From: a candidate division WOR-3 bacterium
GTDB lineage: Bacteria > Hydrothermota > Tepidihabitantia > SM23-42
Direction: 5' to 3'
Length of the DNA: 37,802 nucleotides
Assembly (NCBI GenBank): GCA_029858255.1
Contig: JAOUFJ010000023.1
Span: forward strand, 1-37,802
The translations under genes were made by a program, and so were the position numbers. Numbering within the stretch: the first letter of the stretch is position 1; the number at the start of each line of letters is the position of its first letter. The notes under the pieces were generated by a model. It did not search any database, had not been told where the DNA came from, and worked only from the letters and a program-made list of their open reading frames with translations. Below, piece by piece: positions 22,190-37,701 of this stretch.

Positions 22190-24550
22190 TTACCGTCCGT
22201 GCTCGGTCCGCCGGATTATTTCATCCTGAAGGTCTTTGCCTAAATCGACAAAATAGTCACTATATCCCGCCACCCTAACGATGAGATCACGATACTTCTC
22301 CGGATCTTTTTGAGCTTTCTTCAGCGTCTCGGTGGTGACGACATTGAATTGAATATGATGACCGTTCATACTGAAATAAGCACGTATCAACGCTGCAAGG
22401 TTTTTCAATCCCTCCGCGTCTGCGAGTAATTGCGGTGTGAATTTCTGGTTGAGCAGCGTTCCGCCGGTTCGGATATGGTCGATTTTCGCCGCGGATTTGA
22501 TGACCGATGTGGGCCCGTTCTTATCCGTACCCTGCACCGGAGAAATACCCTCGGAAAGCGGGGTGCACGCTCTGCGGCCATCGGGTGTTGCACCGACCTT
22601 GCTCCCGAAATAAACATGTACGGTCGTTGGTAAAAGATTGATCCTGAAATGTCCACCTTTCGTATTGGGCCTGCCATCGACCGACTCGAAGAAGATATCG
22701 AAAACCCGTTTCATGATCGAATCTGCATAGTCATCGTCATTTCCGTATTTGGGAGTATCATCCCATAATTTTCCACGAACCAAATCAAAACCCTTGAAAT
22801 CATTACGCAGTGCAGTCAACAACCTGCGCATGCTGATATCTTTCTTGTCGAACACATGGAACTTGATCGCGGTCAGTGAATCAGTGATGCTTCCCAGTCC
22901 TACACCTTGAATATAAGAAGTATTATAGCGAGCACCGCCATTATGGTAGTCTTTACCTTCGGCAATACAATCGTCGATCACTGTCGACAAGAATACGGCT
23001 GGCATGTACTTCGCGTATATACGCTCGATGATAAGATTAGCCTTTATCTTGATATCAATGAAATGATCCAGCTGCTTTCTGTACGCCGAGAATAACCCAT
23101 CAAACGTTTTGAACCGTACTGGATCGCCAGTGTGCAATCCAAGTTTTTTGCCGGTCAACGGGTCTTTACCATTATTGAGCGTGATCTCAAGAATTTTGAC
23201 GAGGTTGAAGTAACCAGTTAGAATATAACTCTCCTTGCCAAAAGCGCCGGTCTCTACACACCCGCTTGCGCCGCCATTACGCGCGTCAACGACCGATTTC
23301 CCCTGCCTGAGTAATTCCTGAACTATCTCATCAGCATTGAAAATCGACGGTTGCCCGAATCCGGTTCTGACTATCTTGAGTGCCCGTTCCAAAAACTTGT
23401 CTGGACTCTTGTGGCTCACCTGTAACATGGAACTCGGCTGCAATATTCGCATTTCTTCAATAACATCAAGGATTAGATATGACAGCTCGTTCACACCGTT
23501 GGACCCGTCTGGTTTCAAACCTCCCAAATTGATCAAGCAGAAATCAGTATAGGTATTGCTTTCTTGCGCCGTCACACCAACCTTGGGCGGGGCGGGCTGA
23601 TTATTGAATTTGATCCAGAATGCCTGGAGCAACTCACGTGCCCGTTCTTTGGTCAGTATCCCGGACGCAATATCTCTCTTGTAGAAAGGATACAGATGTT
23701 GGTCTAACCTTCCCGGGTTGAACGAATCCCAGGTATTGAATTCGGTGATCACTCCAAGGTGAACGAACCAGTAGTACTGCAGCGCTTCCCAAAAAGTACG
23801 CGGCGCATGACCCGGTACCCAGTCACACATCCCTGCCATTTCCTTCAGCTCCTTCCTTCGGGCCAGCGATCTGGTCTTTTTGCTTAACTGCCCGAGCCTC
23901 CATGCATGGCGGTGTGCAAACTCCATCAAAGCATCAATAGCAACGGACATCGCTCTGAGTTCTTCACGTTTGTCAAATGCCTCGGCATCATTATAGAAAT
24001 CCAGTGCAAGAATTCCTTCCCGGATTCTGACCTTGAAATCCAAGAACCCATACCTGTATATCTTGTCGTCGAGAACCGTGTGACCAGGAGCTCGCTGCTC
24101 CATAAATTCCGTAAAAACTCCTGCCGCGTAAGCTTGCTGCCAGTCTTTATCGGTCTCTTGAAAAATATGTTCCCGTATTGAACGACCTCGCCAAAACGGA
24201 ATTATGCGCTCCTCATAGATATCCCGCGTGCGCTTACTGACGCGGAATGCGACTTTTTCCCGTGAATCCAGAATATCAAGATCATCAAGACTGTGAATGC
24301 ATATCTCTGGGTATGTAGGTGTCGCGCGCGGCGCAGGACCCCTCTCACCTACGATGAGTTCACCGTCGTCAATGAATATTTTCTTATGCCTCAGTATATA
24401 CTCAAAAGCAAGCGCCCTCGCAACCGGTATTGAAACCCGTTCCGCATTACCCTTCTCATAAAATTCAGTGATCAGGCAGGCGCGCTCAGCCGACACATAC
24501 GGTTTGATGTTCAGACTCTTATCCCTGAGCTTCGCTATTCTCTCATTCAC
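22190..24550 (-). CDS. Glycyl radical enzyme, PFL/dehydratase family, substrate unknown
   Basis: The 786-residue product has both hallmarks of the family: the radical glycine in VRVAGYSDYF (Gly762) near the C-terminus, and the catalytic cysteine loop GGASGCVETG (Cys431 and Glu433). The GCVE arrangement belongs to the dehydratase/decarboxylase/lyase branch (glycerol, hydroxyproline, choline, isethionate or arylacetate enzymes) and not to true pyruvate formate-lyase, which has two adjacent cysteines. Which substrate it uses cannot be read from the motifs. GTG at 24550 is the start; it overlaps the TGA of the activase in GTGA. The enzyme needs anaerobic conditions and the activase next door. Confidence 0.9.
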   Translation of the reverse strand: MNERIAKLRDKSLNIKPYVSAERACLITEFYEKGNAERVSIPVARALAFEYILRHKKIFIDDGELIVGERGPAPRATPTYPEICIHSLDDLDILDSREKVAFRVSKRTRDIYEERIIPFWRGRSIREHIFQETDKDWQQAYAAGVFTEFMEQRAPGHTVLDDKIYRYGFLDFKVRIREGILALDFYNDAEAFDKREELRAMSVAIDALMEFAHRHAWRLGQLSKKTRSLARRKELKEMAGMCDWVPGHAPRTFWEALQYYWFVHLGVITEFNTWDSFNPGRLDQHLYPFYKRDIASGILTKERARELLQAFWIKFNNQPAPPKVGVTAQESNTYTDFCLINLGGLKPDGSNGVNELSYLILDVIEEMRILQPSSMLQVSHKSPDKFLERALKIVRTGFGQPSIFNADEIVQELLRQGKSVVDARNGGASGCVETGAFGKESYILTGYFNLVKILEITLNNGKDPLTGKKLGLHTGDPVRFKTFDGLFSAYRKQLDHFIDIKIKANLIIERIYAKYMPAVFLSTVIDDCIAEGKDYHNGGARYNTSYIQGVGLGSITDSLTAIKFHVFDKKDISMRRLLTALRNDFKGFDLVRGKLWDDTPKYGNDDDYADSIMKRVFDIFFESVDGRPNTKGGHFRINLLPTTVHVYFGSKVGATPDGRRACTPLSEGISPVQGTDKNGPTSVIKSAAKIDHIRTGGTLLNQKFTPQLLADAEGLKNLAALIRAYFSMNGHHIQFNVVTTETLKKAQKDPEKYRDLIVRVAGYSDYFVDLGKDLQDEIIRRTEHGR

Positions 24551-25374
24551 TCCATACCCCTTATCCTGATCTGTAAACCATAATCCTTGAATCTCTTGCC
24601 AATTGCACGCAGAGCATTGTTCGATGGTGGCGCTAAATCTTTAAGTGAATATTTTTTTCCCATTCTTCTATATTTGTCCTTGCAGAGATAATTATACGGC
24701 AATATATGTAAAGTATCAACATGCTTTAAATCCCTCAAAAATGAACCGATGGCCCGCACGTTATCAGGTTTGTCGGTGATGCCCGGAATCAATGGAAAGC
24801 GAATCACAATTGGCGCGCCTCCCATGGCGAGTTTCTGGAGGTTTTTGAGAATCAACTCAGTACCCACGCCGGTATGTTTTTTGTGTTCACTATCGTCCAT
24901 CAGCTTGAGGTCGTAGAGGAAAAGATCAGTATATCTAATGATGTGCTTGAATGTCGACCAGGGTGCCTGCCCTGATGTGTCTACTACCGTATGTATACCT
25001 TGTTTCTTGCATTCCCTCAGAAGGCAGAGCAGAAAATCCGGCTGCATGAGAGGCTCACCGCCTGAAAAAGTCACACCGCCTCCTGAATGTTCGTAGAAAA
25101 TCGCATCCTTCTTTACCTCGGACATGACCTGTTCAACCGTGACTTCATGTCCGATGGTATTCTTGTCTTTGGCAAAGAAAATGCTTGAATATTTACGCCC
25201 CTGCACATCGTTGACTATTTCGGGCTCTTTTTTCTGACTCTCCGGGTTCTGGCACCACAAACACGTGAGTGGACAGCCTTTCAGGAAAACGGTCGTCCTG
25301 ATGCCTGGTCCGTCGTGTATTGCGTATTTGATGATATCGAAGACGATTCCGACAGAACGGTTCCCGCGCGGCAT
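24547..25374 (-). CDS. Glycyl radical enzyme activating enzyme (radical SAM)
   Basis: The 275-residue product has the radical-SAM cluster motif CPLTCLWC (Cys34, Cys38, Cys41), the IHDGPGIRT signature before it, and FSGGEP at about 103-108 for SAM binding. It puts the glycyl radical on the neighbouring enzyme. Most activases of the dehydratase branch carry an eight-cysteine ferredoxin-like insert between the cluster motif and GGEP; here that stretch (45-100) has no cysteine, as in PflA. It is translated first, and its stop overlaps the next start. There is no ribosome binding site, and the nearer promoter puts the transcription start at or next to the ATG, so the message may be leaderless. Confidence 0.9.
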   Translation of the reverse strand: MPRGNRSVGIVFDIIKYAIHDGPGIRTTVFLKGCPLTCLWCQNPESQKKEPEIVNDVQGRKYSSIFFAKDKNTIGHEVTVEQVMSEVKKDAIFYEHSGGGVTFSGGEPLMQPDFLLCLLRECKKQGIHTVVDTSGQAPWSTFKHIIRYTDLFLYDLKLMDDSEHKKHTGVGTELILKNLQKLAMGGAPIVIRFPLIPGITDKPDNVRAIGSFLRDLKHVDTLHILPYNYLCKDKYRRMGKKYSLKDLAPPSNNALRAIGKRFKDYGLQIRIRGME

Positions 25375-26069: not shown

Positions 26070-26435
26070 ATGACAAGGAGAGATTTTATCAAATCCCCGG
26101 CAACTGGCACTGTAGCTTTTTTCGCTGGACTAATAGATTTTGGTTGCGGCATGAAAGAGACCCCAAAAGAAAAGACAACACAATCCGAAATGACCGAAGA
26201 ACAGAAACGTGAATATGTACTTGCCAATTGTATCTGCGGCAAGTGTCCGAGTTGGGAAGAATGCGGAGAAAAGGGAGGATTCTGCCTTATAGGCAAGAGT
26301 ACCTGCATCAAGGAGAAAAAAGGTTGCATCTGTCCTGACTGTCCCGTTACAGCAAAGATGGGATTGAAGTACGGATACTATTGCATTGAAGGAAGTGCAA
26401 AATCGCTGATGGAAGCAGAAGCTAAGACAGGCTGA
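26070..26435 (+). CDS. Cysteine-rich DUF2769-like exported protein
   Basis: The 121-residue product starts with a twin-arginine-like leader (MTRRDFIKSPATGTVAFFAG) and a possible lipidation site at Cys26 (FGC), though the residues before it are not typical. Residues 52-112 hold ten cysteines (CICGKCPSWEEC ... CICPDCPVTAKMGL...YYCIEG), the DUF2769 pattern; such spacing suggests zinc or an iron-sulfur cluster, and Tat export would suit a cofactor loaded inside the cell. AGGAGG lies before the ATG. It has its own promoter. DUF2769 has no known function; it occurs in methanogens and some anaerobes (from memory). Confidence 0.75.
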   Translation: MTRRDFIKSPATGTVAFFAGLIDFGCGMKETPKEKTTQSEMTEEQKREYVLANCICGKCPSWEECGEKGGFCLIGKSTCIKEKKGCICPDCPVTAKMGLKYGYYCIEGSAKSLMEAEAKTG

Positions 26436-28540: not shown

Positions 28541-29959
28541 CTATCGTATCAAAGTGACCCGGGTGCCTGTCGCAAACTCCCCCTGCATGAGATTGATTAT
28601 ATACAATCCAGATGCTACAGTTCTTCCATGAACATCCCTACCGTCCCAAACAATATCGTGCAATCCTGGTGCCATGACCCCATTGAGCAAAGACTGAACC
28701 ATTCTGCCAGCAGCGTCATATATTGCCAGGCGTACCCTCTCAGTACCTGAAGTTGAGATTTGAATGGTACACTGCCGCGTGAAGGGATTGGGATGCACCC
28801 GGCTAAGACCAAACGTCGGCGGTCCGTCTTTTAGAAAATTCTGTCCTAATATTTCCTGGAGTGCATTGATGAATCCATACATCTCATCTACCGTACCGGT
28901 GGAGACGCGAATATGCCTCGGCATACCCCAACCCACGCGCACTTGATAACCTCTATTAGCGAGCTGCGAAGCAACAGAAGTTGCGCTCATTCCGGTATCA
29001 AACATCATGAAATTGGTCTCAGACGGAATGTACTCGAGCTGCAGCGCAGTTAACCCGTTCATCAAAATTTCTTTTGCATGATCATTGAGACTGACCGTAT
29101 TGTCGACATGATCGATATCGTCAAGAGACGCGATTGCCGCCGCTTGCCCCAACCTGCTTACCATTCCAATATTCTGGGAGGATTGTATCATCGAGGTGTA
29201 CCCGCCCGACGCTACTGAATATCCGATACGCACACCCGCTAAACCATACGCCTTCGAGAACGTTCGTATCACTATCATGGGAAATCCTCCAGTAACGTAA
29301 CGGATGCAACTCTCATAGTAAGGTGAATGTATGTAATGATGATAGGCTTCGTCGACGACGACAATGACTCCTGGTGGAAGCGAGTTCATGAAAATCCTCA
29401 TATCCTGCATGGTAAAAATCGTGCCCTGAGGATTGTTCGGGTTCACCAAAGAAATGAGCTTGGTGTTCTCTGTTATTGCAGCCTTAATGATATTCAAATC
29501 TATCACATAACGCTCATTTACCGGCACATGTACAACCGATGCACCGTTAGCCGTGGCTTCCGAAGCCATCTGCGAGTAGGTTGGCGTTGCTGTTACCATC
29601 TCATCTCCCGGATACAGGAAGGTATCTGCGACCAGACGGATCAGCTCGGTCGCGCCAGTCCCTGCGCAGATCATGTTCGAACTCACATTATGATGCTCGG
29701 CAATCCTCGCTTCCAGTGTCGAGCTAAACCAATCAGGATAACGATGGCCTTCATATGCCGCTTCTCTCATGGCCTCGAGAGCCAGGTGTGATGGTCCTAA
29801 AGGATTTTCATTGTAGCAGAGGCGGCCAAATGTGTCTTCAGATTCTGTGAATTCAAACGGGTTTGCCTTTACACGACCGACACCGGGCAAGTAGACGAAG
29901 CTCAAGCCAGCAGCTGATGCTTGCAGGAACTCCCTTCGCGACATCTTGTTCTTGCCCAT
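28541..29959 (-). CDS. Tat-exported HisC-like aminotransferase with C-terminal sorting domain
   Basis: The 472-residue product begins with a twin-arginine leader (KMSRREFLQASAAGLSF). Residues about 45-370 form a fold-type-I PLP aminotransferase close to histidinol-phosphate aminotransferase: YNENPLGPS at 49-57, NPNNPQGT at 173-180, DEAYHHY at 203-209, the PLP lysine Lys236 in TFSKAYGLAG, and Arg244. All key residues are present, so it should be active. The last 85 residues are the sorting domain (VHPNPFTRQCTIQI ... LAIYDAAGRMVQSLL ... GRTVASGLYIINLMQGE). An exported, sorted PLP enzyme is unusual; Tat would carry it folded with its cofactor. GGAGG lies seven bases before the ATG. Confidence 0.88.
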   Translation of the reverse strand: MGKNKMSRREFLQASAAGLSFVYLPGVGRVKANPFEFTESEDTFGRLCYNENPLGPSHLALEAMREAAYEGHRYPDWFSSTLEARIAEHHNVSSNMICAGTGATELIRLVADTFLYPGDEMVTATPTYSQMASEATANGASVVHVPVNERYVIDLNIIKAAITENTKLISLVNPNNPQGTIFTMQDMRIFMNSLPPGVIVVVDEAYHHYIHSPYYESCIRYVTGGFPMIVIRTFSKAYGLAGVRIGYSVASGGYTSMIQSSQNIGMVSRLGQAAAIASLDDIDHVDNTVSLNDHAKEILMNGLTALQLEYIPSETNFMMFDTGMSATSVASQLANRGYQVRVGWGMPRHIRVSTGTVDEMYGFINALQEILGQNFLKDGPPTFGLSRVHPNPFTRQCTIQISTSGTERVRLAIYDAAGRMVQSLLNGVMAPGLHDIVWDGRDVHGRTVASGLYIINLMQGEFATGTRVTLIR

Positions 29960-30161: not shown

Positions 30162-30263
30162 AATACAAGAATAAAAACATGATATTTGGCAGAAATGCGA
30201 CTTTTTTGTGATTTTGCTGTGACAATCCCATTTAGCATACTAGTGGAGAAATGGGAGGTAGAG

Positions 30264-32942
30264 ATGAAAAATATTAGCAGACAAGTACATTGTGTCATGA
30301 TAGTCATCTTCGCAGCTGCCATGTTACATGCTACCCAATCCATAACAAAATCCCAGGTGGGATCATTCTGGACGGAAGATGCTTTTCTCTTCGACACGAC
30401 CGTGATGTACACACAAGCACGTGGTAATCAAAGGTGGTCTTCAGCCGCTTTTGACGGAACCAACTATCTCGTCGTTTGGCATGATTCACGCTTCTACCCT
30501 CAGCACGATGTTTTCTGTGCAAGAATAGATCCCGAGGGTCATCTTCTCGATTCTGCCGGCATACATGTTGCGACCATCACTTTTGATAACCTCCAGTACT
30601 ACTGCAATGCAACACCTGCAGTCGCCTACAACGGGACAAACTATCTTGTAGTCTATCAGGACCGCCGTAGTTCCGTGGAAACGGATATCTACGGTGCCCG
30701 TGTTACACCTTCGGGCAATGTCCTCGATCCTGACGGTATCCCGATCTCAACTGCGCAGGGATATCAATGGCATCCTTGCGTTGCATCCAATGGCTTCGAT
30801 TTTCTTGTTGTGTGGCAAGACCTGCGCACGGGAACGCCGGACATATATGGCGCACGGGTTGACCATAACGGCATTGTTCTTGAACCAGACGGCATCGCGG
30901 TCAGCAGTGCACCACGAAGTCAGGAGTTCCCTTCGGTTGCTTCCGATGGAACAGATTACTTCGCCGTATGGCACGACGCACGAGACAGTACAAACACGCA
31001 ATATGATATATATGGAGCCAGGATAACTGCAGATGGAATCCTACTCGATACGAACAGTGTTGCGATCTTCGTAGATACAGGCCAGCAGACTGAACCGTCG
31101 ATCGTTTCTGACGGTACGGACTACTTCATTGTATGGGAGGACTGGCGCGCGCAGGTGCTGGCCATCATGGGTGCGCGCGTGGACAGTCTGGCCAACGTAC
31201 TTGACCCAAACGGTATCAGTATTTCCGGTATGCCGTCAATGATGGAATGGCACCCCTCGTTGGCGTTCAATGGCACTGACTATCTGGTTGTCTGGGCTGA
31301 TGACCGCAATGGAATAGATCCCGATATCTATGGCGCACGCGTAAACCAAAGTGGTATTCTTATGGATACACTGAACATACCCATTTCGGTGACCAATGGG
31401 ATGAAATGGATGCCTTGTGTGACAACTGACGACGATAACTTTCTCGTTGCCTGGGATGATGAGCGCGATTTCCCTTCGGGCGATGTATACGGAAGCCGGG
31501 TGAGTGCTACAGGTTCCGTGCTCGACCCTGTAGGCCTCAATATCACCACCTCTGCAGTATTCCATGTCGAGCCCGGCGTCGCGTACTGCGGCGAGAATTT
31601 CCTCGCCGCATGGGCTGACGTCCGGAGCGGACTTTATCTATCCGATATCTACGGGGCTCGTGTGGACGCAACCGGTATGGTTCTCGATTCGCCCGGCTTT
31701 GCGATCTGTACAGCGCAATTCGGACAGTATTCTCCATATATTGCCTTCGACGGGACGAACTATTGCTCAATCTGGACCCATAACATTGGCGGTGCGTGGA
31801 GTGTCAAGGGCGCGCGCATCTCGCCGGCAGGTACGGTCCTGGATCCAGCCTACATCAGTGTTTCATCCGCGGGCAATGCTATGTCGCCGCAAATAGCATC
31901 GCACGGCAATGGCTTTTTCACGGTATGGGTCGATTACCGGAATAGCTACACCAGCCCTGATATATATGGTGCGCGTATCGCCTCGGCAGGCTATGTTCTT
32001 GACCCTGCAGGGTTTGCAATTTCAAATCTCGGTGGGCTCGAATATCGACCTGCGGTATGCTTCGGCGAAGTCCACTATCTGGTGGCGTGGGAAGACACGC
32101 GCAACGGACTGAAGGACATCTATTGCACAAGGATCGATACGAGCGGAAACATCCTCGATCCCGGTGGTATTGCTGTGACGAACGATGCTGAATTACAGGA
32201 CAATACAGCGATGGCATTTAGCGGTACAAATTACCTTCTCGTCTGGCAGGACAAAAGAAATGGTGATTACGACATATACGGCGCGCGTGTCGCACAAAGC
32301 GGTGCTGTACTCGATCCCACGGGCATTGCCATATCGACTGCACCCAACGATCAGATCAACCCTTCAGTCGTTTTTGATGGCGTTGACTACATCGTAGTAT
32401 GGGAAGATCGCCGAGAACTCCCTTCCGACATCTATGGAGCGACAATAGATACGAGCGGTGCCGTGATCGACAGCTTCGTAGCCATCGCGCAACCAGGACC
32501 TCAAAGCAATCCCAAGCTCAGCCACGGCCCAGGCGCCAAAACACTCCTGACTTACAGCGGGTGGACCGAATATATCAATGCACATCCGGCAAACGCCCTG
32601 CGTATATGGGGCAAATTCCATCCGGAACTGGGAATCACTGAGCACGATGGGGAGACGCAAGCAACTTCCTTACTCAGTTTTTCGCCCAATCCGTTCACCG
32701 GGCTGGCCACGGTCAGCTTCAGCATCGGGCAAAATGCAGAGCGCATAGGGTTGAAAATCTATGATATTGCTGGACGATTAGTGAAAGTTCTGTATGACGC
32801 CATGCCCCATGCACCATGCGCTATGCAGATTAGCTGGGATGGTACGGACCAGTCTAATCGAGAATTACCCAGCGGCGTCTATTTTGTCCATGTCACATCA
32901 GGCGATGACAGCGCAGTGGAGAAAGTACTGCTGGTGAGATAG
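30264..32942 (+). CDS. Secreted 13-repeat protein with C-terminal sorting domain
   Basis: The ATG at 30264 has GGAGGT before it; an upstream frame start at 30186 lacks one. The 892-residue product has a signal peptide (about 1-26) and then thirteen tandem repeats of 50-55 residues, each with the core NYLVVWxDxRxxxxDIYGAR and ending VLDPxGIxIS. The repeats probably form beta-propeller blades or a long solenoid. Residues about 800-892 are the sorting domain (SFSPNPFTGLATVSFSI ... GLKIYDIAGRLVKVLYD ... GVYFVHVTSGD ... KVLLVR). The repeats are well preserved but not identical, so they are not recent copies. Function unknown; adhesion or binding is likely. Confidence 0.9.
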   Translation: MKNISRQVHCVMIVIFAAAMLHATQSITKSQVGSFWTEDAFLFDTTVMYTQARGNQRWSSAAFDGTNYLVVWHDSRFYPQHDVFCARIDPEGHLLDSAGIHVATITFDNLQYYCNATPAVAYNGTNYLVVYQDRRSSVETDIYGARVTPSGNVLDPDGIPISTAQGYQWHPCVASNGFDFLVVWQDLRTGTPDIYGARVDHNGIVLEPDGIAVSSAPRSQEFPSVASDGTDYFAVWHDARDSTNTQYDIYGARITADGILLDTNSVAIFVDTGQQTEPSIVSDGTDYFIVWEDWRAQVLAIMGARVDSLANVLDPNGISISGMPSMMEWHPSLAFNGTDYLVVWADDRNGIDPDIYGARVNQSGILMDTLNIPISVTNGMKWMPCVTTDDDNFLVAWDDERDFPSGDVYGSRVSATGSVLDPVGLNITTSAVFHVEPGVAYCGENFLAAWADVRSGLYLSDIYGARVDATGMVLDSPGFAICTAQFGQYSPYIAFDGTNYCSIWTHNIGGAWSVKGARISPAGTVLDPAYISVSSAGNAMSPQIASHGNGFFTVWVDYRNSYTSPDIYGARIASAGYVLDPAGFAISNLGGLEYRPAVCFGEVHYLVAWEDTRNGLKDIYCTRIDTSGNILDPGGIAVTNDAELQDNTAMAFSGTNYLLVWQDKRNGDYDIYGARVAQSGAVLDPTGIAISTAPNDQINPSVVFDGVDYIVVWEDRRELPSDIYGATIDTSGAVIDSFVAIAQPGPQSNPKLSHGPGAKTLLTYSGWTEYINAHPANALRIWGKFHPELGITEHDGETQATSLLSFSPNPFTGLATVSFSIGQNAERIGLKIYDIAGRLVKVLYDAMPHAPCAMQISWDGTDQSNRELPSGVYFVHVTSGDDSAVEKVLLVR
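32800..32827 (+). repeat. Short ATGC-rich microrepeat inside coding sequence
   Basis: CCATGCCCCATGC, CACCATGC, GCTATGC follow each other, an imperfect tandem of a 7-8 base unit. It encodes AMPHAPCAM in the linker strand of the sorting domain, where the other proteins have a shorter turn. It is probably an expanded microsatellite-like insertion kept in frame. Confidence 0.45.
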
Positions 32943-33031: not shown

Positions 33032-34897
33032 TCAAAGAAGATCTTTTAATGTCAATTTTTTCACAAGAGACTTATCTCCACGTAATATTTCGATCGTATA
33101 AGTTGTCCCCGCATCTGCTCTCATCAGTTCACGGAGCGCGATAACACCATCGTAGTACTGGACACCGATTCCGTTTACGGATTTGATGATATCGCCTTTC
33201 TGAAAACCAGCATCTTCTGCTGGCGTACCAGGTGAGATAAATACCACTTCAACATCATTTTCATCGTTATAATAGAATTGCAGCCCGCTCTTTGGCCTCG
33301 GCAATTCCACCCCGAAATCATTGCCTTTTTCCAGTATCACTCGTTGACCATTGTAATCCAAATATAGCACAAAGTTGCTCAAGAATGAGTTGCCGATGTT
33401 CCCTATGACAGTCTCAGATGCAAACACGCCTGTCCCTTCTTCGTGGGGGGTGCCAATCCACGGATCTTTAATAACAAATCCACCGACCTCGACCGTCTTG
33501 AATTTTGATATCCTGCTGGTAGTGAAACCTGCCGCGTCGCCGGCCATTATGTCAAAACCAGATCTATCCAGCAGACCATGTTCTTCTGCATAAGGATAGT
33601 GAAAATCAAGGTCAGGCGCTCCTATGTCCAATGTCCACTTGCCCGCATACTTGCCATCAACCGTGACTTGAAGATTCAACATATTGCTCTGTAACGGCGA
33701 GTCAAAAACCTTACCTTTGCCGGTGTACTTAAATTTCGCGGGATGATAAAAGGAGATCGTCTGCTTGGCGTAATCTATTTTCGTTACAAATCGCGAGAGA
33801 AAATCATAACCAAGGATACCTACCACATCCAGCCCGAGAGCCTTCTTAAACAGGTGACGGAAATTGAAAGCAACCACCTTCTGCTGATTGAACAGGATTC
33901 CGCCAACTGAATACGCCGGTATGGTGACAAAATATAAATCGACGATGCCCGAGGCACCCCGCCCTTTTATCGGGCCTTCAAACGCCAAGCCTGCTTCCGC
34001 GGCGAAGCTCGAATCGATGACGTTGACCGATGCGCCGCAATCGAGCACCCAGAGCCGCTCCTTGCCCATGATGTTAACAGGCAGATAGATATGATTCTCA
34101 ATGAATTCAACTGGAGCATTCTCTGCACTGATACCGTTTGCGAAAACAAAATCCTCGACATCCTCTGCCGGTGGTTCAAAGAGAGCAGCGTCCAAACCGA
34201 CGCCGAACCTGTACGTGGAATACTCAACCGAAACTGTTTCGTCAGTTGGAAGTTGTCTAATGACTTCCCGGAATGGAAAAACAAGGCCATTGACTCTACG
34301 AAAATCAGAATATGAAATATGCACTTCGTTATCGGGTTTTAGGATCATCGTTTTCAGAAGATAGAAGTTGGATCTATCGTAGAAATTCATCTGAATATCT
34401 TCGTTTATCTTATTCGTCATCTTCAGCACGTAGCAATCACTGCCCTCCAGTTTCTCGACACCTTCGAATGTCAATGTGAAGTATTCTGATCCGGGGTTCA
34501 AGTATTCGTATTCCTCCATCAGTCTTCTGACCTCACGTTCTTTTAAGGTATGCTCATCTCTTCTGATCAACACTTTTCCGTTCGCGTCAACATGCCAGCT
34601 TACTTCACCATCATCCCCTGACACTTCACTCACTACCTTGAGATCTGTTTCCTGTCTCAATTTCAGCGGACGTTCGCTCCACTCCTTGAATGTACCCTCA
34701 AGACCAGCACCTAGGTTGACGATAGTACCTTCTTTGTACATTGTCTTTAGTGCCTTTAAGTTGTTCAGACCTCCAACTGCCTCAAAATGTTTTTCGAGGA
34801 TCTGATAAGGGTCGGACAGTTTTGTCTGACTGTACACTGGTGCTGCAAAAGCGGACAAAACTAGCATGATTGCTGATGCCAATATTCGAAAACGCAT
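33032..34897 (-). CDS. Exported tandem-lobe aspartyl protease with PDZ domain
   Basis: The 621-residue product has a signal peptide (1-23, ending VYSQ). A LolA-like lipoprotein-carrier module covers about 25-245. Then come two retropepsin-like lobes in tandem: the first has VLDCGAS (Asp286) and ends GILGYDFLSRFVTKIDY; the second has TLDIGAP (Asp424) and ends GNIGNSFLSNFVLYLDY. The usual D-T/S-G-A is D-C-G-A and D-I-G-A here, so the nucleophilic Asp is kept but its neighbour is changed in both; activity is uncertain. A PDZ domain spans about 538-615 (SPGTPAEDAGFQKGDIIKSVNG). Third in a compact operon after an ArsR-like gene and a small ORF. Confidence 0.85.
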   Translation of the reverse strand: MRFRILASAIMLVLSAFAAPVYSQTKLSDPYQILEKHFEAVGGLNNLKALKTMYKEGTIVNLGAGLEGTFKEWSERPLKLRQETDLKVVSEVSGDDGEVSWHVDANGKVLIRRDEHTLKEREVRRLMEEYEYLNPGSEYFTLTFEGVEKLEGSDCYVLKMTNKINEDIQMNFYDRSNFYLLKTMILKPDNEVHISYSDFRRVNGLVFPFREVIRQLPTDETVSVEYSTYRFGVGLDAALFEPPAEDVEDFVFANGISAENAPVEFIENHIYLPVNIMGKERLWVLDCGASVNVIDSSFAAEAGLAFEGPIKGRGASGIVDLYFVTIPAYSVGGILFNQQKVVAFNFRHLFKKALGLDVVGILGYDFLSRFVTKIDYAKQTISFYHPAKFKYTGKGKVFDSPLQSNMLNLQVTVDGKYAGKWTLDIGAPDLDFHYPYAEEHGLLDRSGFDIMAGDAAGFTTSRISKFKTVEVGGFVIKDPWIGTPHEEGTGVFASETVIGNIGNSFLSNFVLYLDYNGQRVILEKGNDFGVELPRPKSGLQFYYNDENDVEVVFISPGTPAEDAGFQKGDIIKSVNGIGVQYYDGVIALRELMRADAGTTYTIEILRGDKSLVKKLTLKDLL

Positions 34898-36072: not shown

Positions 36073-37701
36073 ATGAAAAGGGTCCTTTCAGCCCTCGTAG
36101 TATGTATATGTTTCACCAATGCGGCATATGCTGCAGGTACTGTATATGAAACGACTTTCTATAGTCCATCATTAGCCAGAGAGTGTTCGGTGCAAATATA
36201 TCTCCCAGATGGCTATGATCCTATGGGAAGCACCCAATATCCAGTTGTATACTTTTTACACGGAGCGCTTGATAACCACATGGGTTACTCATTCATTCTC
36301 GACATATTCGACATAATGATTGCAGGGCAAATAATCGAACCGGTAATTGTCGTTAAGCCGGACGGACGCAGCACACCATATGTTGTCAGCTGGTCCACAA
36401 ATTCAATACTCAATGGACTATATGAGGATTACCTCGTCAATGACCTCGTGGATTTCGTTGAAACGAACTACAATGCAATACCACAGTCGGAATACCGCTA
36501 TATCATGGGACACTCGGCAGGAGGTTACGGTGCAATGACCCTGGGTCTCAAGCATCCTGATGTATATTCGCGACTTGCCGCTCACAGCGGTGTACTGGAA
36601 TTCAACGTGCTGATCGTGGCCGCCCTTCCCGCACTTCTGGCAGAATACCCTCTGGGACCACCCTACATCTGGAACCCCTTTGCCGGATTCTTTTCAGGCG
36701 TATTCTTCTCACTGGGAGCAGCATTCTCACCCAATTTCCTCAATCCACCTTTTTACGTCGATCTCCCCCTCGATGAAAATGCACAAATAATTGAACCCAT
36801 ATGGCAACTATGGCTTCAGCACAACCCACCCTCATATGCCGCAGGGTTACCGCCAAATACAGAACTGGGGATATACTTCGATTGTGGTACCATGGATGAG
36901 ATGGGCTGCTATCCTCAGAATGTAGTCTTCGCAGACATCCTTTCACAACTCAATATCGACCATGAGTTCCAGGAATACGTTGGCGATCACTCCTCGGTAC
37001 TACCCGAACGCTTTCCTATCAGTATCGCATTTCTAGTCGGTCTCAAGGCACATGTTTACTTCCAACCTACGATCCTGAACCTTGGCAGCGCTGGCACCTG
37101 GATCACCTGCCACATCGGGCTGCCAGGTGATTATCTGATCACTGACATCGACCCGTACTCGGTCGTGCTCAATGAGATCAATGGAATCGCTCTTGACCCG
37201 CCGTTGTACCGGGAAGGACCGATCGAGATCTGCGAGTACCGCGGCGAATTGTGCCTGATGGCAAAATTCAACCGCCAAGATGTGATCGAGCATCTATATA
37301 CAGCAGGAATCACCGGCAAGCAAACGGTCGAACTCGTCGTCGCCGGCGAACTCACCAATGGTATCCCCTTCCATGATATTGGTGCGCTCAACGTAACCGG
37401 CACTGCTGGACCGCAGGGCAATGAAATGGCCTACAAGACAGGCGGGATCCTGTACAAATGCATACCGAACCCCTTCTCCACCACGACCGCGATTCTATAC
37501 GAAATTCCCAGTGAAACACATGTAAGCGTCACCATCTACAATGCCGTCGGCCAGCGTGTCGCGACCCTGGTCGATGCTACACAGGAAGCAGGCTCTTATT
37601 CTGTATCCTGGGAAGGCAAGAATCTCCCGAATGGTGTCTACCTCTGCACAATGGAAACCGATGGATGTACCGAAACACAGAAAATACTGCTTATGAAATA
37701 A
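36073..37701 (+). CDS. Secreted esterase (alpha/beta-hydrolase) with C-terminal sorting domain
   Basis: The 542-residue product has a signal peptide (about 1-20, ending AAYA). Residues 25-325 are an esterase D / S-formylglutathione-hydrolase-like alpha/beta hydrolase: YPVVYFLHGALDN forms the oxyanion side, GHSAGGYG holds nucleophile Ser148, and YVGDHSSVLPERF probably holds the catalytic His. Family members include feruloyl and acetylxylan esterases and mycolyltransferases; the substrate is not defined. A middle beta module (about 325-455) follows, then the sorting domain (CIPNPFSTTTAILYEI ... VTIYNAVGQRVATLVD ... GKNLPNGVYLCTMETDG ... KILLMK). GGGAGGTG precedes the ATG. Confidence 0.88.
   Translation: MKRVLSALVVCICFTNAAYAAGTVYETTFYSPSLARECSVQIYLPDGYDPMGSTQYPVVYFLHGALDNHMGYSFILDIFDIMIAGQIIEPVIVVKPDGRSTPYVVSWSTNSILNGLYEDYLVNDLVDFVETNYNAIPQSEYRYIMGHSAGGYGAMTLGLKHPDVYSRLAAHSGVLEFNVLIVAALPALLAEYPLGPPYIWNPFAGFFSGVFFSLGAAFSPNFLNPPFYVDLPLDENAQIIEPIWQLWLQHNPPSYAAGLPPNTELGIYFDCGTMDEMGCYPQNVVFADILSQLNIDHEFQEYVGDHSSVLPERFPISIAFLVGLKAHVYFQPTILNLGSAGTWITCHIGLPGDYLITDIDPYSVVLNEINGIALDPPLYREGPIEICEYRGELCLMAKFNRQDVIEHLYTAGITGKQTVELVVAGELTNGIPFHDIGALNVTGTAGPQGNEMAYKTGGILYKCIPNPFSTTTAILYEIPSETHVSVTIYNAVGQRVATLVDATQEAGSYSVSWEGKNLPNGVYLCTMETDGCTETQKILLMK

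What the first reader, a model, noticed from the sequence alone, without database searches (positions are those of the whole stretch)
28541..29959. Tat-exported, sorted PLP aminotransferase
All key residues of a HisC-like aminotransferase (Asn173, Asp203, Lys236, Arg244) are intact, yet the protein has a twin-arginine leader and a secretion/anchoring domain. An active aminotransferase outside the cell has no obvious substrate supply. Tat export fits loading PLP before transport. This may be an undescribed extracellular amine or amino-acid chemistry.
Basis: partly seen in the sequence, partly recalled or inferred. Interest (0 to 1): 0.68.

Follow-up and report, generated by a model that had tools for sequence, protein, structure and literature searches.

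The report
Surface-bound aminotransferase exported ready folded
This gene encodes a vitamin-B6 enzyme that carries both a signal for export in folded form and a tag for secretion to the cell surface, a pairing that publications on this secretion system say does not occur and that here recurs in three protein families and in at least two bacterial phyla.

Summary
Window 28541-29959 (minus strand) encodes a 472-aa protein: Tat leader (SRREFLQ...VKA), an intact HisC-like fold-type-I aminotransferase, and a seven-strand FlgD/T9SS-type C-terminal domain. It is not an assembly join: the same three-part protein is read in ten genomes of one WOR-3 (Stahlbacteria) family and three of a second lineage, with omega 0.03-0.09 in enzyme and tail. 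The genome encodes TatC, a SprA-like translocon, PorV-family proteins and a PorU sortase. It is not HisC: it scores below the HisC cut-off, lacks HisC's N-terminal arm, and histidinol dehydrogenase was not found in the genome. A Tat-exported periplasmic PLP transaminase is already known (PtaA), so chemistry of this kind outside the cytoplasm is not undescribed. What is new is the route. Of 83 tail-bearing ORFs sampled here, 69 have Sec-like leaders and three have Tat leaders: this enzyme, a nitroreductase-like protein and a DUF362 protein, each with conserved orthologues. Publications state that all T9SS effectors use Sec. Best reading: cofactor enzymes folded in the cytoplasm, exported by Tat, then passed to T9SS. 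Export, activity and substrate are untested.

The parts
28541..29959 (-). whole gene, 472 aa plus stop
   Evidence: open reading frame; orthologues; omega 0.035-0.06 in the enzyme part against the two closest
29864..29959 (-). Tat leader, residues 1-32, predicted cleavage after VKA
   Evidence: SRREFLQ motif, R8 and R9 invariant in all aligned orthologues
28844..29830 (-). HisC-like fold-type-I aminotransferase domain, residues 44-372
   Evidence: PF00155 and TIGR01141 (below cut-off); model and Foldseek match to 3ly1
29252..29254 (-). Lys236, the PLP-binding lysine in TFSKAYGLAGVRIGY
   Evidence: invariant in Tat-type and HisC sequences
28811..28840 (-). flexible linker, residues 374-383
   Evidence: pLDDT below 50 between two ordered domains
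28544..28810 (-). T9SS-type C-terminal sorting domain, residues 384-472, seven strands
   Evidence: FlgD_ig over cut-off; strands; same tail family as about 80 other ORFs of the genome

Best explanation
A PLP-dependent aminotransferase that works at the cell surface or outside the cell. It folds and takes up PLP in the cytoplasm, crosses the inner membrane by Tat as folded holoenzyme, loses its leader after Ala32, and is then recognised by its C-terminal domain and passed across the outer membrane by the SprA/PorV translocon of a type IX-like system, where the PorU sortase may remove the tail. Outside, it does ordinary transamination with its bound PLP, regenerated by an oxo acid. The likeliest substrates are free external amino acids (aromatic or broad range) or an amino group on a secreted or surface molecule. 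Shown: the three-part architecture, its conservation, the intact active site, and genes for both export steps. Inferred: order of transport, final location, activity and substrate.
For: Leader and tail kept together in every close orthologue that could be read in full, in WOR-3 and in a second lineage. Catalytic residues invariant; omega 0.03-0.09 in enzyme and tail. TatC in 23 of 23 family genomes, SprA_N in 137 of 147 phylum genomes, PorV family in 23 of 23, PorU sortase 450 bits against a cut-off of 420 in the own genome. Both genomes outside WOR-3 that were tested also have SprA. Two other families share the Tat-plus-tail plan. SprA is reported to move folded proteins (PMC9251779). PtaA shows that Tat can deliver a working PLP transaminase (PMC6206403).
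Against: No experiment. Publications state that T9SS effectors use Sec. The T9SS motor protein GldM was not found, in a search that rang in no control either. The tail falls just short of the Por_Secre_tail cut-off. No neighbour points to a substrate or an amino acceptor.
Confidence: 0.58

Rival explanations
1. Periplasmic enzyme only: Tat exports it, and the tail is an Ig-like module that docks it to an envelope component without passage of the outer membrane.
For: Known relatives with Tat leaders (PtaA) are periplasmic; the best tail match is FlgD_ig and Por_Secre_tail is below cut-off.
Against: The tail belongs to the same family as those of about 80 other ORFs of the genome, most with Sec leaders, and translocon, PorV-family and PorU genes are present.
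Confidence: 0.22
2. PtaA-like tailoring enzyme: wherever it sits, its real substrate is an amino or glutamyl group on a secreted natural product or surface polymer, not free amino acids.
For: PtaA acts on the glutamic acid residue of pyoverdine (PMC6206403); the surface location would suit a large substrate.
Against: No biosynthetic cluster recognised in the window; score on the PtaA model 190 bits against a cut-off of 500.
Confidence: 0.2
3. The tail-bearing protein no longer works as an enzyme and serves as a PLP- or ligand-binding surface protein.
For: No visible supply of substrate or amino acceptor outside the cell.
Against: All catalytic residues invariant and strong constraint; a Tat rather than Sec leader argues for a folded cofactor protein.
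Confidence: 0.06
4. Histidinol-phosphate aminotransferase of histidine synthesis with a misread start or a spurious tail.
For: Best single family model is hisC, 249 bits.
Against: Below the hisC cut-off of 276.55; another gene, L002, scores 348.6; histidinol dehydrogenase not found in the own genome; separate clade; leader and tail conserved.
Confidence: 0.02
5. Assembly or frame artefact that joins unrelated pieces.
For: The source is a metagenome-type assembly in 82 contigs.
Against: Same fusion in independent, including single-contig, genomes and in a second lineage.
Confidence: 0.01

Closest known systems
PtaA, periplasmic transaminase A of Pseudomonas fluorescens (NF051461)
   Same: HisC-like PLP transaminase with a Tat leader; profile matches from residue 5 on, leader included; Tat export with PLP bound is published (PMC6206403).
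   Different: 190 bits against a cut-off of 500; PtaA's model (359 positions) has no room for a C-terminal sorting domain; it acts in pyoverdine maturation, and none is known here.
PRK09105 / NF006580 and 3ly1-type aminotransferases of Proteobacteria
   Same: HisC-like fold with Tat-like leaders in Serratia (L177), Proteus (L066) and Novosphingobium (L065); 3ly1 is the best structural match, target TM 0.91.
   Different: No C-terminal sorting domain; about 30% identity; window protein 222 bits against a cut-off of 444; separate clades in the tree.
HisC, histidinol-phosphate aminotransferase (TIGR01141)
   Same: Fold and catalytic residues.
   Different: Below cut-off; no N-terminal PYxPGKPIEE arm; Tyr128 for Phe; altered PFNVN region; no histidinol dehydrogenase found.
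Type IX secretion effectors (type A CTD)
   Same: C-terminal seven-strand domain; genome encodes SprA-like, PorV-family and PorU proteins.
   Different: Tat instead of Sec leader, against the rule stated for T9SS effectors.

Membership tests
Fold-type-I PLP aminotransferase (PF00155) | Profile match over cut-off with PLP lysine and partners intact | tested here: met
   157.7 bits, cut-off 19.7; N173, D203, Y206, K236, R244, R351 conserved
Fold-type-I PLP aminotransferase (PF00155) | Transaminase activity | not testable with these tools
   needs purified protein
HisC (TIGR01141) | Score over the equivalog cut-off | tested here: not met
   249.2 against 276.55
HisC (TIGR01141) | HisC N-terminal arm (PYxPGKPIEE) | tested here: not met
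   absent in all ten Tat-type sequences, present in the WOR-3 HisC proteins
HisC (TIGR01141) | Works in a genome with the histidine pathway | tested here: not met
   no PF00815 match in the own genome; only this one pathway gene was tested
PtaA (NF051461) | Score over the equivalog cut-off | tested here: not met
   190.6 against 500
PRK09105 (NF006580) | Score over the subfamily cut-off | tested here: not met
   222.4 against 444
Tat substrate | Twin-arginine motif followed by a moderately hydrophobic stretch and an AxA-like site | tested here: met
   SRREFLQASAAGLSFVYLPGVGRVKA; R8 and R9 invariant; no trained predictor was run
Tat substrate | Tat machinery in the genome | tested here: met
   TatC 209 bits in the own genome, 23 of 23 family genomes
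Tat substrate | Tat-dependent export | not testable with these tools
   needs a reporter assay
T9SS effector | C-terminal seven-strand sorting domain | tested here: met
   seven strands at 384-470; FlgD_ig over cut-off, Por_Secre_tail 23.4 against 27
T9SS effector | SprA, PorV and PorU in the genome | tested here: met
T9SS effector | T9SS motor (GldM/PorM) | tested here: inconclusive
   no match in 23 genomes, but no control genome rang either
T9SS effector | Sec-type leader | tested here: not met
   Tat leader; the Sec rule is stated in PMC10202324 and PMC12618676. It may work like a T9SS effector all the same.
T9SS effector | Secretion that depends on the system | not testable with these tools
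   needs a secretion assay

The most novel reading that the evidence does not exclude
A Tat-to-T9SS pathway: a class of cofactor proteins (PLP aminotransferase, nitroreductase-like, DUF362) that are folded in the cytoplasm, exported by Tat and then displayed at the surface by type IX secretion, giving uncultured bacteria cofactor-dependent chemistry outside the cell.
Probability: 0.5. Interest if true: 0.78.

Novelty: new variant of a known kind. Interest (0 to 1): 0.6.

Why it matters
Publications on type IX secretion state that all effectors enter the periplasm by Sec. If these proteins are delivered as predicted, that rule falls: the system can take over cargo already folded with its cofactor. 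That widens what such cells can display and makes it directly testable whether the SprA channel accepts pre-folded cofactor enzymes. It also suggests amino-group chemistry outside the cell in WOR-3 bacteria, a phylum with very few cultures.

Tried and rejected
Assembly join: rejected, the fusion recurs in single-contig and other independent genomes. Recent fusion of the genome's own HisC: rejected, a separate fully supported clade at 32-38% identity to HisC. Histidine synthesis: rejected. Function from gene neighbourhood: weak. The hydroxyproline dehydratase and its activase (window 22190-25374) lie nearby in four loci of one genus only; a TonB receptor, lipoprotein and tailed-protein set follows in other loci, but orders vary. 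Affinity with the proteobacterial Tat-leader aminotransferases: unresolved, long branches. Structure from ten close orthologues alone was poor (mean pLDDT 45.5); adding HisC relatives gave 80.7. GldM search uninformative. PtaA's primary paper was not held, so statements on PtaA rest on a review.

Full report
What is there. Window 28541-29959 on the minus strand is one open frame of 472 aa. Residues 1-32 read as a Tat leader, MGKNKMSRREFLQASAAGLSFVYLPGVGRVKA. Residues 44-372 are a HisC-like fold-type-I aminotransferase. Residues 384-472 match FlgD_ig (38.3 bits, cut-off 27) and, just below cut-off, Por_Secre_tail. A model made with 30 aligned sequences has mean pLDDT 80.7: a confident aminotransferase body, a low-confidence linker at 374-383 and seven strands at the C terminus. 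Seven strands is the published T9SS CTD fold (PMC10994853). The best solved match is 3ly1, TM 0.91 on the target.

It is real and conserved. A search of 147 genomes of the phylum found close orthologues (65-90% identity) in ten further genomes, all of the same family, so that 11 of its 23 genomes carry one. Nine of these ten, like the window, show leader, enzyme and tail in one frame, one of them cut at a contig end close to its last residues; the tenth runs into a run of N after the leader and half the enzyme. Named relatives show the lineage to be candidate division WOR-3 / Stahlbacteria. Outside it, L056 (56% identity) has the same three parts, two more genomes of its phylum have them too, and L057 shows the leader and half the enzyme before a run of N. 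Against the two closest orthologues dN/dS is 0.035-0.06 in the enzyme and 0.08-0.09 in the tail.

The enzyme looks active but is not HisC. N173, D203, Y206, S235 and K236 are invariant in the Tat-type sequences, R244 and R351 in the ten full-length ones, and all but one of these also across 30 Tat-type and HisC sequences. It scores 249 bits on the HisC equivalog model, cut-off 276.55; another gene of the genome, L002, scores 348.6. HisC's N-terminal PYxPGKPIEE arm is replaced by leader and linker; residue 128 is Tyr instead of Phe; the region of HisC's PFNVN motif is changed. The Tat-plus-tail proteins form a 100/100 clade apart from the HisC proteins. Histidinol dehydrogenase was not found in the own genome and is seen in 4 of 23 genomes of the family. 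From established knowledge of HisC (not tested here), the lost arm carries a tyrosine that contacts the substrate phosphate, so a non-phosphorylated amino acid or amine is the likelier substrate (inference). The second protein by fold is Rv3772, named a putative phenylalanine aminotransferase in the structure library; this fits an aromatic substrate but does not prove one.

Export machinery. TatC is in all 23 genomes of the family. SprA_N is in 137 of 147 genomes of the phylum, in the own genome in a frame of 1808 aa. PorV family members exceed the cut-off in 23 of 23. The PorU sortase model gives 450 bits in the own genome, cut-off 420. The GldM search found nothing, but rang in no control genome either.

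The route is the strange part. In stretches around the tail matches of the own genome I counted 83 tail-bearing ORFs: 69 with Sec-like leaders, 3 with Tat leaders, 11 cut off or without a clear leader. The three are this enzyme, a nitroreductase-like protein (L106, Pfam match below cut-off) and a DUF362 protein (L126). Orthologues of the latter two occur in other genomes of the family, and those whose ends were printed keep leader and tail. Two publications state that all T9SS effectors have Sec leaders (PMC10202324; PMC12618676), and searches of the held library for Tat together with T9SS turned up no counter-example. SprA is reported to carry folded proteins (PMC9251779), so a folded Tat cargo is compatible with it.

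Precedent. PtaA and PvdN of pseudomonads are PLP enzymes exported by Tat with their cofactor, and PtaA is a transaminase active in the periplasm (PMC6206403). HisC-like proteins with Tat-like leaders and no tail are found on plasmid-collection records of Proteus, Novosphingobium and Serratia. So enzyme and Tat leader together are a known kind; adding a type IX tail is the variant.

What it does. No neighbour names a substrate. The surroundings hold tailed, apparently secreted proteins, a TonB receptor, an aspartyl protease with PDZ, and a hydroxyproline dehydratase with its activase, which would suit scavenging of protein and peptides, but that is only a suggestion. I put about 0.58 on the surface-transaminase reading as a whole, and less on any one substrate.

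Noticed in passing
L106:383-1903 (minus), own genome contig C19: Nitroreductase-like protein with Tat leader and T9SS-type tail; seven near full-length orthologues and one fragment in the family.
   Followed up: partly
L126:554-1870 (plus), own genome contig C15: DUF362 protein with Tat leader and T9SS-type tail; orthologues in 15 of 23 family genomes counting the own one.
   Followed up: partly
window 22190-25374: trans-4-hydroxy-L-proline dehydratase (NF043068, 1287 bits, cut-off 1100) with its radical-SAM activase, a glycyl-radical pair in a WOR-3 genome.
   Followed up: partly
window 26070-26435: Small cysteine-rich DUF2769 protein with a Tat-like leader and a cysteine where a lipoprotein site would be; conserved in L047.
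   Followed up: no
own genome G000 and family f1: Histidinol dehydrogenase not found in 19 of 23 genomes although HisC-scoring genes (such as L002) are kept; L002 may serve aromatic amino acids.
   Followed up: partly
L065: Novosphingobium humi plasmid: a Tat-leader HisC-like aminotransferase lies between two TonB-receptor-like frames, a possible siderophore or peptide setting.
   Followed up: no
WOR-3 phylum: SprA-like T9SS translocon in 137 of 147 genomes, although several papers call the system specific to Bacteroidota.
   Followed up: partly
window 30186-32942, 33032-34897, 36073-37701: Neighbouring large repeat protein with sorting tail, aspartyl protease with PDZ, and esterase with sorting tail.
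   Followed up: no
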